Assembly: GCA_030998015.1 (NCBI GenBank)
Contig: JARWMV010000222.1
Span: 1-12,020 of the forward strand
Origin: Ceratorhiza oryzae-sativae
Lineage: Eukaryota > Basidiomycota > Agaricomycetes > Cantharellales > Ceratobasidiaceae
Length of the DNA stretch: 12,020 nt
Direction: 5' to 3'
The notes beneath the pieces are model-generated. The model was not told the DNA's origin, made no database searches, and saw only the letters and a list, made by a program, of their open reading frames with translations. Shown here piece after piece: positions 274-8,068 of this stretch (position 1 is its first letter; every line of letters begins with the position of its first letter). A program made the position numbers and the translations under genes.

Positions 274-445
274 CCGCGCGCGTTAGTTGCTGGTGGGACT
301 TGTCCCACCAACCAACGTGAGCAATCGCAACCGTTTGCGATTGCTAGTGCGCGGCATAATATCGATATTTAGCCGCCGGCTGAAAATGACGAACGGTCGT
401 CATTTTCTACGAGGGAATCTTTAGGATTCCCTCTAACGCCGGCGG
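274..445 (-). mobile_element. twin-Y element, copy A (172 bp)
   Basis: It has the same architecture as copy D and lies in reverse orientation on the plus strand. It interrupts the second half of U1 between ...NYKDRP and VRKLSDI. CTGT occurs next to the left end and one base beyond the right end (on the minus strand), a possible 4-bp direct repeat. Most other copies show no such repeat, so this may be chance. Confidence 0.93.
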
Positions 446-809
446 ACAGGTCTATCTTTATAATTAAAAATTACTCCACAGTCGAAAAATTTGGCTAGAT
501 TTTCAATCAAATCAGTATCTCTGGAATTTAATCCCACTGAAAAGCCAGGATCGACTCTATAACCTATTTTGTGTTTACTATCTTTGCTTACATGAGCAAA
601 GAAAGATCCGTCACCGGACACGAAACCTGCAACCCATAAAGGATTCAACTCTTCGGTAACTCTGACGATTTCTCTGTCTAAAATCACACTGCTACAAGAT
701 TCAGCTTGAGATTCATTTAATATGTTAGCCAGTTCTGTTGTTAATCCTAAATTCAATTTGGATTTAAGAATTAAAATTCTAATAAATCCTTACCTGTTTA
801 AGTGTTCTT

Positions 810-981
810 CCGCGCGCGTTAGTTGCTGGTGGGACTTGTCCCACCAACCAACGTGAGCAATCGCAACCGTTTGCGATTGCTAGTGCGCGGCATAATATCG
901 ATATTTAGCCGCCGGCTGAAAATGACGAACGGTCGTCATTTTCTACGAGGGAATCTTTAGGATTCCCTCTAACGCCGGCGG
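810..981 (-). mobile_element. twin-Y element, copy B (172 bp)
   Basis: Full-length copy matching A over its whole length. It splits U1 between the two LAGLIDADG halves, after FNLFSSIVEL and before EHLNR. The reading frame does not rejoin exactly across it. No convincing target duplication is visible. Confidence 0.93.
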
Positions 982-1105
982 AGTTCAACTATTGAACTAA
1001 ATAAATTAAAATCAACTCGTTTTTGAGTCATTAAAATGAATTCTTTGAAATGAGGAATTATTATTTCATTTAAATCTTTAACTCTAGTTACAACATATTG
1101 TACCC

Positions 1106-1277
1106 CCGCGCGCGTTAGTTGCTGGTGGGACTTGTCCCACCAACCAACGTGAGCAATCGCAACCGTTTGCGATTGCTAGTGCGCGGCATAATATCGATAT
1201 TTAGCCGCCGGCTGAAAATGACGAACGGTCGTCATTTTCTACGAGGGAATCTTTAGGATTCCCTCTAACGCCGGCGG
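1106..1277 (-). mobile_element. twin-Y element, copy C (172 bp)
   Basis: Full-length copy interrupting U1 after GRIKIDK and before VQYVVTRV. Extra G residues at the GCGCGG end (minus strand) make the exact boundary ambiguous and leave a one-base frame difference on removal. Confidence 0.93.
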
Positions 1278-1738
1278 ACTTTATCTATTTTTATTCGCCC
1301 TACTTCATTAAAAAATGATTTTATTCTCAATAAAATATCTAAATCTTTTATGTGCAATGCAATAGAAAAAGTAGGCTGTAATTCCCATCCTATTTTTAAT
1401 TTATCATTTTTATGACATGAAACTGAAAATGAGGATTCTGCGTCTGAGAAACCTGTTACGAACCAAGGGTCTAGTGTATTATGAGAATTAGTAGTATAAT
1501 TTGATATAGCCCTTTTATTAATATGGTTCTTGTATTTATTATTGGTCATTAGAAAGACCCTAGCAAACAAACCCAAGAAACGGTTTTCCCCTATTAGTTC
1601 ATTGTACATTTTACCTACGATATTTAGTGTCCAATAGTATAAACCTGCAAATAGAGCAGATGCTGCTCCCATTGATGAAATAACTTGTTTAGTGTTTGTT
1701 GTTAACAGCCACATATTCTTTTATTGGCTATTTATTTT

Positions 1739-1995
1739 CATACCCCCGCGTAGGGTCAACCAGCATTGTATTTATATATAAATACATGCTGTTGACCCGA
1801 GGGGTATGGTTATCGAGGCCGCGTTCGCGGCGAGGTATTGCGAGGTACCCTGGAACTTTAAGTTCCAGGGTACCTCGGAATCAGACGCCGCGCGCACGCC
1901 AGGGCCGCCTTGGCTTGATTATTGACCTTAAGGTCAATATGAGCCAAGCTTGCTTGGCTTAAGCCAAGGCGTTCGCAGGCGTGCACGGGTCATAT
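1739..1995 (-). mobile_element. Z composite palindromic element, copy 2 (257 bp)
   Basis: Near-identical to 7190-7446. In plus-strand order it holds: a long hairpin CATACCCC...GGGGTATG (1739-1808) with a TATTTATATATAAATA tip; a GCCGCGTTCGCGGC hairpin; the perfect 17-bp-arm palindrome at 1841-1875 (GAGGTACCCTGGAACTT); and a GCACGCC/GGCGTGC stem enclosing further hairpins. On the minus strand it is flanked by ATATG on one side and TATG on the other. It separates the U1 leader from the U1 start region, and joining the flanks gives a leader that aligns with the U2 leader. Confidence 0.85.
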
Positions 1996-2040
1996 TGACG
2001 CTGGTGCTGAAAAGCTTTCTGGTTGTTTTTATCTCTTTTA
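1996..2040 (-). promoter_or_regulatory. leader repeat upstream of U1
   Basis: On the minus strand, AAAGCTTTTCAGCACCAG is followed by CGTCAAT, preceded by AAAAGAGA. Almost the same stretch lies at 5781-5824 upstream of U2. Both copies precede degenerate cox1 N-terminal coding sequence, so I infer that this is the captured 5' leader of cox1. The authentic cox1 5' end is outside the window, so this is untested. Confidence 0.6.
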
Positions 2041-2046
2041 TGTAAA

Positions 2047-6162: not shown

Positions 6163-6951
6163 TTAGCTAGATTTTTTTTTAAGTCTATAGTACTTACAAA
6201 TTAATTTTAGTCCATATTCGCTTCGAATAGCTGTTTTTATTCGATATTGACCCAAAACAGATTTTAGTTTATGATTGTTTCGAATAACTGTTCTTAGCAC
6301 AGAAAAATTTTGAATTTTTTCTTCTAGTCCATAATAGTTTCGAATAGCTTCAATTAGATAATAATCATGATTTTGAGCAATACTGAAAGAATAATTTCCC
6401 CGAACACGACTACTGAACGAGCCCTCAGATTCTATAAATCCTGCTAGCCATTCCTGGAAATAGCTAGGAAGTGTAGCATCTGTAAATAGAGGTATAATTG
6501 AATCTCGATCTTTGTATTTTAGTCCTCGTTCAATAAAGTATTGATCTATATCAGGATTAAGTAAATATTTTTTAAAGAAGTTATATTGAAGTCTCATACG
6601 ACTAGTTAGAGGTAGATACTCATCAAGTAAAGGTAGAATAGTCTGATAAAATGTATTTTTATCATTTACAACCCATTGTACATAGCCTGAGTTTTTTTTG
6701 CTACCTCGGTTAACAGAACCACCATATGCTTTAGCGATAACACTAAGCATTTCATAGTTAAGTGGTTTATCTGCGAGTTTAACAACTAATCGAAATTGTA
6801 ATATTTTTTTACGCCAGTGGTTAACTTGGAGACTACCGACTCCGTCTATGAGACCAACTGTGAAAGGAGCGAGTTGTTTATTGGAAAGAATTCGTGGTGA
6901 CTTAAGTGTTTGACCAGCAATGATAAAGTTGCTAGCAACGTTTAGACAAGT
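6163..6951 (-). CDS. LAGLIDADG homing endonuclease of intron iD, in frame with exon c
   Basis: The ORF continues without a stop from cox1 exon c (ANASLDVALHD) into the intron and ends at TAA (6163-6165). About 262 intron-coded residues carry two LAGLIDADG-type motifs, TVGLIDGVGSLQV near the N-terminus and EWLAGFIESEGSFSS about 130 residues later. Such proteins cut the intronless cox1 allele to spread the intron, and some act as maturases; translation as an exon fusion followed by proteolysis is the usual route. It is the only HEG in the window with an unbroken frame. The acidic residues expected in both motifs (D and E) are present. The C-terminus is unusual: three roughly 20-residue degenerate repeats (6207-6360) replace the family's usual ending, so activity is uncertain. 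Confidence 0.85.
   Translation of the reverse strand, partial: TCLNVASNFIIAGQTLKSPRILSNKQLAPFTVGLIDGVGSLQVNHWRKKILQFRLVVKLADKPLNYEMLSVIAKAYGGSVNRGSKKNSGYVQWVVNDKNTFYQTILPLLDEYLPLTSRMRLQYNFFKKYLLNPDIDQYFIERGLKYKDRDSIIPLFTDATLPSYFQEWLAGFIESEGSFSSRVRGNYSFSIAQNHDYYLIEAIRNYYGLEEKIQNFSVLRTVIRNNHKLKSVLGQYRIKTAIRSEYGLKLICKYYRLKKKSS
6207..6360 (-). repeat. degenerate tandem repeat in the C-terminus of the iD endonuclease
   Basis: Three plus-strand units start at about 6207, 6264 and 6324 with TTAG or CTAG, and each contains TTCGAATA(G/A)CT. In the protein they read EAIRNYYGLE, TVIRNNHKLK and TAIRSEYGLK, spaced 19 to 20 residues apart. Confidence 0.6.
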
Positions 6952-7001
6952 ATCGTGTAGAGCCACATCTAGTGAAGCATTAGCAAGAACAATTCCTGTT
7001 A
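6952..7001 (-). CDS. cox1: cytochrome c oxidase subunit I, exon c (50 nt)
   Basis: It encodes (L)TGIVLANASLDVALHD, the conserved COX1 segment just before the HDTYYVVAHFHYV block. Boundaries come from both joins. Exon b ends GGGT and this exon starts TAACAGG, giving GGLTG. It ends CACGAT and exon d starts ACATAC, giving HDTY. Both flanking introns then end in G and follow an exonic T, as expected for group I introns. The microexon is continuous with the endonuclease ORF of intron iD. Confidence 0.93.
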
Positions 7002-7189
7002 CAAAATTATAATCTTTCATAACTAAAAAAGTAACCTTTGTACGGAGTTTGTAATTCTATATTTTTCTGGATAATAGTATGGCTTATACCCAGTTCTTTT
7101 GAGGCAATCAATATCCCATCATATCGTCTAATAAATTCTTTTTGAGAATTAAATAAGAAAATAGCTTTTCTAATATGAGAACTGTTTTT

Positions 7190-7446
7190 CATACCCCCGC
7201 TTAGGGTCAACCAGCATTGTATTTATATATAAATACATGCTGTTGACCCGAGGGGTATGGTTATCGAGGCCGCGTTCGCGGCGAGGTATTGCGAGGTACC
7301 CTGGAACTTTAAGTTCCAGGGTACCTCGGAATCAGACGCCGCGCGCACGCCAGGGCCGCCTTGGCTTGATTATTGACCTTAAGGTCAATATGAGCCAAGC
7401 TTGCTTGGCTTAAGCCAAGGCGTTCGCAGGCGTGCACGGGTCATAT
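7190..7446 (-). mobile_element. Z composite palindromic element, copy 3 (257 bp)
   Basis: Near-identical to 1739-1995 and in the same orientation. It interrupts the GIY-YIG gene between KVILDM and KNSSHIRK. On the minus strand TATG occurs at both junctions, and removing Z with one TATG gives ...GAT ATG AAA AAC in frame. This supports insertion at TATG with a 4-bp duplication or a matching terminal sequence. Confidence 0.88.
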
Positions 7447-7504
7447 CTAAAATAACTTTTTGGCCTTCCTTTGAGTTATAATCTGAAATTAGAGGTGTAT
7501 CTCC

Positions 7505-7676
7505 CCGCGCGCGTTAGTTGCTGGTGGGACTTGTCCCACCAACCAACGTGAGCAATCGCAACCGTTTGCGATTGCTAGTGCGCGGCATAATATCGATATT
7601 TAGCCGCCGGCTGAAAATGACGAACGGTCGTCATTTTCTACGAGGGAATCTTTAGGATTCCCTCTAACGCCGGCGG
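7505..7676 (-). mobile_element. twin-Y element, copy J (172 bp)
   Basis: Full-length copy in the GIY-YIG gene between EWYFSS and DTPLISDY. Exact removal leaves a one-base offset, so either the target lost bases or the border is one base wider. Confidence 0.93.
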
Positions 7677-7846
7677 GCATACTTGAAAAATACCACTCTC
7701 CTCTGAATAAAGATTCATTTTTTATAGAATTTGTTATTGTAGAAGAATTAGCATTTATAAGATCTGCCAAGGCTCTAACTGAAGGGCATATCATAACTAA
7801 CTGGCGTAAAGAATTATAAATATATAACCGGCGACCCCCGACATTG

Positions 7847-8068
7847 CCGCGCGCGTTAGTTGCTGGTGGGACTTGTCCCACCAACCAACGTGAGCAATCG
7901 CAACCGTTTGCGATTGCTAGTGCGCGGCATAATATCGATATTTAGCCGCCGGCTGAAAATGACGAACGGTCGTCATTTTCTACGAGGGAATCTTTATGGG
8001 AGGTAGCCTGGACCATGAGACTCATGGTCAAGGCTACCTCATCTGAGGATTCCCTCTAACGCCGGCGG
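7847..8068 (-). mobile_element. twin-Y element, copy K (222 bp, nested palindrome at 7996-8045)
   Basis: It carries the same 50-bp insertion as G and H, reversed along with the element. It sits at the centre of a larger imperfect dyad: GACATTGC on its left and GGCATTACAAT on its right, continuing outward in the 8069-8341 cluster. So it is itself nested in another foldback. Confidence 0.94.

What the first reader, a model, noticed from the sequence alone, without database searches (positions are those of the whole stretch)
274..8068. Eleven copies of a 172-bp twin three-way-junction element
Copies A-K (starts 274, 810, 1106, 3245, 3671, 4166, 4594, 4953, 5236, 7505, 7847) are almost identical over 172 bp. 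Each copy is two Y-shaped foldbacks with different stems, joined by an AT linker carrying AATATCGATATT. Known mitochondrial relatives in concept are the Allomyces double-hairpin elements, yeast GC clusters, Neurospora PstI palindromes and small inverted repeats of Rhizophagus. I do not know of a described element with this symmetrical two-Y plan. It has no ORF, so it must move by borrowed enzymes or by DNA repair.
Basis: partly seen in the sequence, partly recalled or inferred. Interest (0 to 1): 0.9.

Follow-up and report, generated by a model that had tools for sequence, protein, structure and literature searches.

The report
Twin-Y element that replaces its target
The mitochondrial DNA of an unnamed organism, likely a fungus, is full of near-identical copies of a 172-letter non-coding element predicted to fold into two Y shapes; 16 of 17 copies that could be measured sit in place of 7 to 11 letters of host sequence, so the element likely spreads by swapping itself in for short targets, with enzymes it would have to borrow.

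Summary
In detail: all 11 copies are at the stated starts, but three (4594, 4953, 7847) are 222-bp forms with a 50-nt extra hairpin. A central 30-mer matches 2,565 times in the redundant 48.8-Mb assembly. In 178,560 nt held there are 92 copies with distinct flank pairs; 48 of the 57 172-bp forms are identical.

New: there is no excess of target duplication. Against homologous proteins, 16 of 17 measurable copies lack 7-11 nt of host between their flanks; related DNA gives 7-12 nt in 21 of 28 alignments. Targets are two-fold symmetric, A-N-B-Y | element | R-V-N-T. The ends are imperfect 13-bp inverted repeats. None of 92 copies lies inside another; one loop accepts different extra hairpins.

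Best reading: a non-autonomous, MITE-like foldback element moved in trans at DNA level, replacing about one helical turn of target. No enzyme is identified; RNA-mediated movement is the main rival. Nearest kinds: yeast GC clusters, Allomyces double-hairpin elements, and the structured repeats reported for Rhizoctonia solani AG3 mitochondria, which could not be compared by sequence. New variant of a known kind.

The parts
274..445 (+). copy A, 172 bp; interrupts a LAGLIDADG_1 ORF (minus strand); 10 nt of host missing
   Evidence: 3 of 3 homologs give 10
274..286 (+). 5' terminal inverted repeat CCGCGCGCGTTAG (copy A)
   Evidence: sequence; 11 of 13 positions match the 3' end; a 47-bp derivative on C77 keeps both ends
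433..445 (+). 3' terminal inverted repeat CTAACGCCGGCGG (copy A)
   Evidence: sequence
274..354 (+). half 1, first predicted Y (one outer stem, two arms), copy A
355..371 (+). AT linker CATAATATCGATATTTA with AATATCGATATT (copy A)
   Evidence: sequence; the 12-mer occurs 59 times for 59 copies in 73,865 nt
373..445 (+). half 2, second predicted Y (outer stem CCGCCGGC/GCCGGCGG, two arms), copy A
810..981 (+). copy B, 172 bp; same LAGLIDADG_1 ORF; 11 nt missing against one DNA relative (a second aligned place gave 49)
1106..1277 (+). copy C, 172 bp; same LAGLIDADG_1 ORF; 8 nt missing (one homolog only)
3245..3416 (-). copy D, 172 bp; interrupts the C-terminal part of a LAGLIDADG intron ORF; 7 nt missing
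   Evidence: 52 of 52 homologs
3671..3842 (-). copy E, 172 bp, CTTTCAG loop variant; 8 nt missing
   Evidence: (16 of 21)
4166..4337 (-). copy F, 172 bp with one substitution near its end; 9 nt missing here, 8 in the C85 copy of the same site
   Evidence: 46 of 46; 47 of 47
4594..4815 (-). copy G, 222-bp form, abuts another repeat family on its right
4617..4666 (-). 50-nt cargo hairpin in the loop of arm 4 (copy G)
   Evidence: sequence
4953..5174 (-). copy H, 222-bp form; 9 nt missing in a LAGLIDADG_2 ORF
   Evidence: 4 of 4
4976..5025 (-). 50-nt cargo hairpin (copy H)
   Evidence: sequence
5236..5407 (-). copy I, 172 bp, between inverted arms CCTTCTC / GAGAAGG
7505..7676 (+). copy J, 172 bp
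7847..8068 (+). copy K, 222-bp form, next to GC-rich repeat sequence shared with other copies' flanks
7996..8045 (+). 50-nt cargo hairpin (copy K)
   Evidence: sequence

Best explanation
This is a 172-bp non-coding mitochondrial foldback element with imperfect 13-bp terminal inverted repeats that likely moves as DNA: a borrowed endonuclease would cut both strands at two inverted half-sites (A-N-B-Y ... R-V-N-T), the 7-11 nt between them are missing at 16 of 17 measured insertions, and repair would set a copy of the whole element in their place. Shown: near-identical units with constant ends at 92 flank pairs, missing host nucleotides, a two-fold symmetric target, no excess of target duplication, no copy of 92 inside another copy, and a loop that carries three different extra hairpins. 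Inferred: that the agent is an endonuclease acting in trans, that both strands are cut, that the donor is copied rather than cut out, and that the two-Y fold is the form recognised. In 10 of 65 sites the flanks form a perfect stem of 4 bp or more, so small hairpins may be preferred targets.
For: Constant termini and near identity (48 of 57 172-bp forms identical; 92 flank pairs). Missing host nucleotides: 7 (4 copies), 8 (5), 9 (5), 10, 11 and 16 (1 each) among 17 measurable of 92, two of the 17 being one site in two contigs; DNA relatives show 7-12 nt in 21 of 28 alignments, at 13 of the 19 listed copies, e.g. CAAGGT[AGTGCAT]GAGTTT. No target duplication flush with the ends: 2 nt 5 of 65 against 4.7 by permutation, 3-5 nt 0 of 65. 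Symmetric half-sites: Y at L-1 61 of 65, R at R+1 64 of 65; A at -4 with T at +4 26% against 8.6% in control sites; left and mirrored right profiles do not differ at positions 1-5, p 0.09-0.99. Flank stems of 4 bp or more 10 of 65 against 2.98 by permutation. Symmetry and intact ends speak for a DNA-level process that treats both ends alike (inference). 33 of 92 copies carry one of three extra hairpins in the same loop.
Against: No enzyme was found. Only 17 of 92 copies were measurable, all in LAGLIDADG ORFs, and relatives are not the true empty sites. One copy gave 16 nt by the automatic rule (7 by eye, with an indel nearby). Flank complementarity is not raised at position 1 (32 against 29.7) or 5-8 (77 against 71.5, p 0.23), and disappears when the 10 most palindromic sites are removed (p 0.35). 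Only 14 of 65 sites match the whole motif. A search for an empty version of site D in the assembly gave 0. Passages seen on similar elements report RNA-mediated proposals (PMC4478555, PMC2800124, PMC10234125).
Confidence: 0.55

Rival explanations
1. The element moves through an RNA copy: a transcript folded into two Ys is reverse transcribed and inserted by target-primed synthesis, the second-strand cut lying 7-11 nt from the first and so causing the loss.
For: Considered for yeast GC42 and for Allomyces elements (PMC4478555 passages; PMC2800124 passages). Very stable RNA fold. A displaced second cut would explain a target deletion.
Against: Both flanks show the same half-site in mirror image, whereas RNA-primed insertion would treat its two ends differently (inference). 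144 of 147 core hits have both ends recognisable. No group II maturase domain was found, although no control genome rang. The reverse transcriptase search scored only 150 of 811 candidates, listed mostly in long frames typical of nuclear elements, so a mitochondrial enzyme is not excluded.
Confidence: 0.25
2. The unit has no mobility of its own and was spread by break repair, copying and ectopic recombination between repeats in a recombining mitochondrial genome.
For: Some copies moved as parts of larger blocks: copy I and its inverted arms recur at C77 and C102, and some flanks are shared (5 left and 4 right flank types). Element positions on C67 and C85 mirror around internal axes.
Against: Most flank pairs are unrelated (92 pairs, 65 after removing shared flanks), the ends are constant, and a narrow range of target loss with a symmetric motif is not what random patch repair would give.
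Confidence: 0.12
3. It is a functional genome part rather than a mobile one, such as a replication-origin-like GC-AT-GC module, an RNA-processing signal, or a ribosome-bypass element.
For: GC foldbacks around an AT linker recall yeast ori modules, and bypass elements also sit in frames (both recalled).
Against: Copies in both orientations, in intron-type ORFs and beside or in other repeats; losses of 7, 8, 10 or 11 nt would not keep one common frame rule. No Rfam family reached its cut-off in the element (best E 0.48).
Confidence: 0.05

Closest known systems
Structured interspersed repeats of the Rhizoctonia solani AG3 mitochondrial genome (Losada et al. 2014, as cited in PMC8488467)
   Same: Large basidiomycete mitochondrial genome, many endonuclease genes, high repeat content (42.73% in AG3), repeats with stable secondary structures (passages). 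One LAGLIDADG_2 homolog is from R. solani AG-1 IB (56% identity).
   Different: The passage speaks of possible catalytic RNA; target loss is not mentioned in the passages seen.
Yeast mitochondrial GC clusters (GC42)
   Same: GC-rich palindromic, non-coding, dispersed, merging and shuffling units (PMC4478555 passages).
   Different: 42 nt against 172; the passages speak of target-site duplication and target nucleotides AG, whereas here no duplication excess and 7-11 nt lost; two Ys instead of a single palindromic cluster.
Allomyces double-hairpin elements and sponge repetitive hairpin-forming elements
   Same: Foldback units in mitochondrial DNA; lack of flanking duplications reported for Allomyces (PMC2800124 passages).
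   Different: No two-Y plan or inverted-repeat ends in the passages seen; no target loss of one helical turn described there.
Heterobasidion 13-bp GC palindromes (basidiomycete mitochondria)
   Same: Optional GC palindromes spread in a basidiomycete mitochondrial genome (PMC10234125 passages).
   Different: 13 bp and 30-52 places per species; no compound structure in the passages seen.
MITEs (nuclear DNA transposon derivatives; recalled)
   Same: Short, non-coding, terminal inverted repeats, high copy number.
   Different: No target duplication; no related transposase sought or seen; in mitochondria.

Membership tests
Yeast-type GC clusters | GC-rich foldback unit in mitochondrial DNA | tested here: met
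   GC 0.54, fold z -11.9, on contigs that also hold cox1 exons
Yeast-type GC clusters | short duplicated target (AG) | tested here: not met
   direct repeats flush with the ends: 2 nt 5 of 65 against 4.7 by permutation, 3-5 nt 0 of 65; host nucleotides missing instead
Allomyces-type double-hairpin elements | two hairpins joined by a linker (definition recalled) | tested here: not met
   each half is predicted as a stem with two arms, not one hairpin
Allomyces-type double-hairpin elements | no duplication of flanking sequence | tested here: met
MITE | terminal inverted repeats | tested here: met
   13 bp, 11 matches (sequence)
MITE | target-site duplication | tested here: not met
MITE | ends shared with an autonomous transposon | not tested
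   no search for a larger element with these ends was made
R. solani AG3 structured repeats | sequence identity with the published repeats | not testable with these tools
   paper not held; no collection of fungal mitochondrial records offered
Known Rfam RNA or ribozyme | score above the family cut-off | tested here: not met
   window 240-480, E up to 10: three matches, E 0.48-1, 16.3-18.5 bits against cut-offs of 40-55

The most novel reading that the evidence does not exclude
A new transposition mode by loop replacement: the element swaps itself in for the 7-11-nt loop of a small foldback held by inverted half-sites, and because its own loops take further hairpins the rule is recursive, building hairpins into Ys and Ys into twin Ys, and so inflating a mitochondrial genome from inside its own foldbacks.
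Probability: 0.27. Interest if true: 0.86.

Novelty: new variant of a known kind. Interest (0 to 1): 0.66.

Why it matters
How non-coding foldback repeats spread in fungal, algal and sponge mitochondria is still open, partly because few copies sit where the empty site can be inferred. Here one genome offers dozens of distinct, near-identical insertions, many in alignable intron ORFs, so the insertion rule can be read: a small target loss between inverted half-sites. That helps to separate cut-and-repair models from reverse transcription and makes the mechanism testable. It also bears on how such repeats came to fill 29-47% of the two stretches examined, depending on stretch and threshold.

Tried and rejected
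Target duplication: copy A shows ACAG on both sides, which looks like a 4-bp duplication, but homologs show 10 nt missing there and there is no excess over 65 sites. Relatives in viral contigs: 0 for two patterns and none for a protein. A DNA search of the own genome with the whole element found nothing (the tool skips very common words); the pattern search worked. Presence or absence among 10 cox1-end loci: 10 of 10 carry the same copies over at least 3,272 nt. Empty version of site D: 0. Reverse transcriptase, maturase and plasmid polymerase searches were inconclusive. 'Halves always occur together' held for 59 of 59 copies in 73,865 nt, but a composite at L050 about 142-347 (C97:50142-50347) carries half 1 joined to another module, so I dropped it. 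The 16 nt for the copy at C85:53567 is kept in the count although by eye it is 7. A looser rule gave the same commonest values, plus -30 for copy I from two weak homologs; one search asks both pieces to score 18 bits or more within 15 nt of the junction, and copy I then drops out. Seven of 28 rows had gaps of 17-49 nt (rearranged or non-homologous places; one is the 47-bp derivative). Rows dropped before counts: 3 of 147 core hits (2 with an altered 3' end, 1 at an edge); 92 flank pairs reduced to 65 by removing shared 10-mers. The first set of 57 copies was superseded. In one search the left flanks were shifted by 3 nt by a loose match; corrected.
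Full report
What was checked. The window is contig C222 of a 48.84-Mb, 253-contig unnamed assembly. It is mitochondrial: it holds a cox1 exon (2380-2871, minus), LAGLIDADG_1, LAGLIDADG_2 and GIY-YIG/NUMOD3 ORFs and a group II intron match. Of the few homologs that carry an organism name, Pappia, Dichomitus and Rhizoctonia are basidiomycetes; others named are Rhizopus, Monoblepharella and one bin labelled Sulfolobus. The host is likely an agaricomycete fungus; it was not identified.

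The observation. Eleven copies lie at the stated starts. Eight are 172 bp; G, H and K are 222 bp. Folding gives two stems with two arms each, joined by the AT linker.

Copy number. The central 30-mer has 2,565 matches with up to 3 mismatches in the assembly, 0 for the reversed control. The mitochondrial contigs are redundant: the last cox1 exon occurs at 10 places on 9 contigs, 99.97-100% identical over about 3.3 kb, so the number of separate sites is far lower; I did not determine it. In six held sequences (178,560 nt) there are 147 core hits, 144 with both ends, at 92 distinct flank pairs: 57 of 172 bp, 26 of 222, 4 of 212, 2 of 214, one each of 170, 173 and 223. 48 of the 57 172-bp forms are identical to the commonest. 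The eight variable positions fall five in unpaired places (46, 82, 120, 121, 150) and three in paired ones (54, 151, 170) of the RNA fold; too few to test covariation.

No duplication, but loss. For each of 92 copies, left and right flanks were compared separately by blastx with the 201 homologous LAGLIDADG proteins held. 17 copies gave a measurable gap: 7 nt (4), 8 (5), 9 (5), 10, 11 and 16 (1 each); two of the 17 are one site (F) in two contigs. In the window: A 10 (3 of 3 homologs), C 8 (1 of 1), D 7 (52 of 52), E 8 (16 of 21), F 9 (46 of 46; 8 in the C85 copy, 47 of 47), H 9 (4 of 4). The same proteins used the other way round (chained tblastn) give net inserts of 161-166 nt in 14 of 17 rows that hold the element, 167 in two (one site seen twice) and 248 in one (a longer form, one homolog). 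Related DNA without the element shows a stretch in place of the insert: 21 of 28 alignments give 7-12 nt, for instance [AGTGCAT], [CCAATGTTT], [TTTAATATT], [TACATAAT]; the other seven give 17-49. These are relatives, not the ancestral alleles.

Target symmetry. After removing shared flanks, 65 sites remain. Left position -1 is a pyrimidine in 61, right +1 a purine in 64. A at -4 with T at +4 occurs in 26% against 8.6% of control sites; A at -2 and T at +2 are each 8% against 26%; left and mirrored right profiles do not differ at positions 1-5 (p 0.09-0.99). Flank complementarity at positions 2-4 is 76 against 55 by permutation, but at position 1 it is 32 against 29.7 and at 5-8 77 against 71.5. 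Stems of 4 bp or more number 10 against 2.98; without those 10 sites the complementarity is not above permutation (49 against 46.4, p 0.35). So the half-site motif is general and the hairpin preference rests on a minority. 14 of 65 sites fit the whole motif, 50 of 65 its inner part.

Self-avoidance. None of 92 copies lies inside another copy, though the element makes up 15.6% of the bases, duplicates included. Suitable motif pairs are half as dense inside it (23 against 47 per kb), so by my arithmetic about 7 would be expected. Other sequences do enter it: 33 of 92 copies carry one of three extra hairpins in the loop of arm 4, and two hits have another foldback in their 3' end.

Nesting and shuffling. 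Repeated 18-mers (5 or more occurrences) cover 40% of the C67 stretch and 29% of the C85 stretch (47% and 34% at 2 or more); repeats have GC 0.54-0.55 against 0.33-0.40 for the rest. Several other families are also predicted foldbacks, and some interrupt the same kinds of ORF. Copy I with its inverted arms recurs elsewhere, once with a 47-bp remnant made of the two ends and one arm; the remnant's signature occurs 44 times in the redundant assembly. One composite holds half 1 alone.

A partial occupied/empty pair. The last 150 nt of cox1 occur twice: in the window followed by TAA, and near C85:8810 followed directly by a 222-bp copy. The sequence after it has diverged, so the loss cannot be measured there.

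Mechanism. Constant ends, near identity, symmetric half-sites, loss of about one helical turn and no duplication point to a DNA-level event that handles both ends alike; a trans-acting endonuclease plus repair is the simplest actor, but is inferred. The RNA route remains the chief rival.

Known relatives. In seven paper searches (listings seen) no listed title or abstract start announces a mitochondrial element with this plan and insertion rule. Passages were read in PMC4478555, PMC2800124, PMC8488467, PMC10234125 and PMC7218506. The R. solani AG3 repeats are the nearest lead and could hold this very sequence.

Noticed in passing
L045 (C85:1-10000), about 8810: A second copy of the cox1 3' end carries a 222-bp element directly after the last sense codon, where the window copy has its stop codon.
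   Followed up: partly
window 1557-1676 and 2708-2827: A piece of the cox1 exon (78% identical) is repeated and fused to a LAGLIDADG_1 frame.
   Followed up: no
window 31-1720 (minus): One LAGLIDADG_1 frame is interrupted by three copies (A, B, C) and also seems to hold an in-frame TAA.
   Followed up: partly
window 3404-3595 and 6163-7056 (minus): Two parts of what looks like one LAGLIDADG intron ORF (by comparison with P0002) lie about 2.5 kb apart with other mobile ORFs and repeats between them.
   Followed up: no
window 1735-1995 and 7186-7446: A second repeat family, 261 bp, two identical copies, also a predicted compound foldback; relatives interrupt ORFs elsewhere.
   Followed up: partly
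G000 contigs C67 (84,169 bp) and C85: Element positions mirror around internal axes: large inverted duplications, real or from assembly.
   Followed up: no
L050 about 142-347 (C97:50142-50347): Half 1 of the element joined to a module of another family, without half 2.
   Followed up: partly
window 10924-11012 (minus): Group II intron match (Rfam RF00029) within or beside LAGLIDADG_2 ORFs.
   Followed up: no
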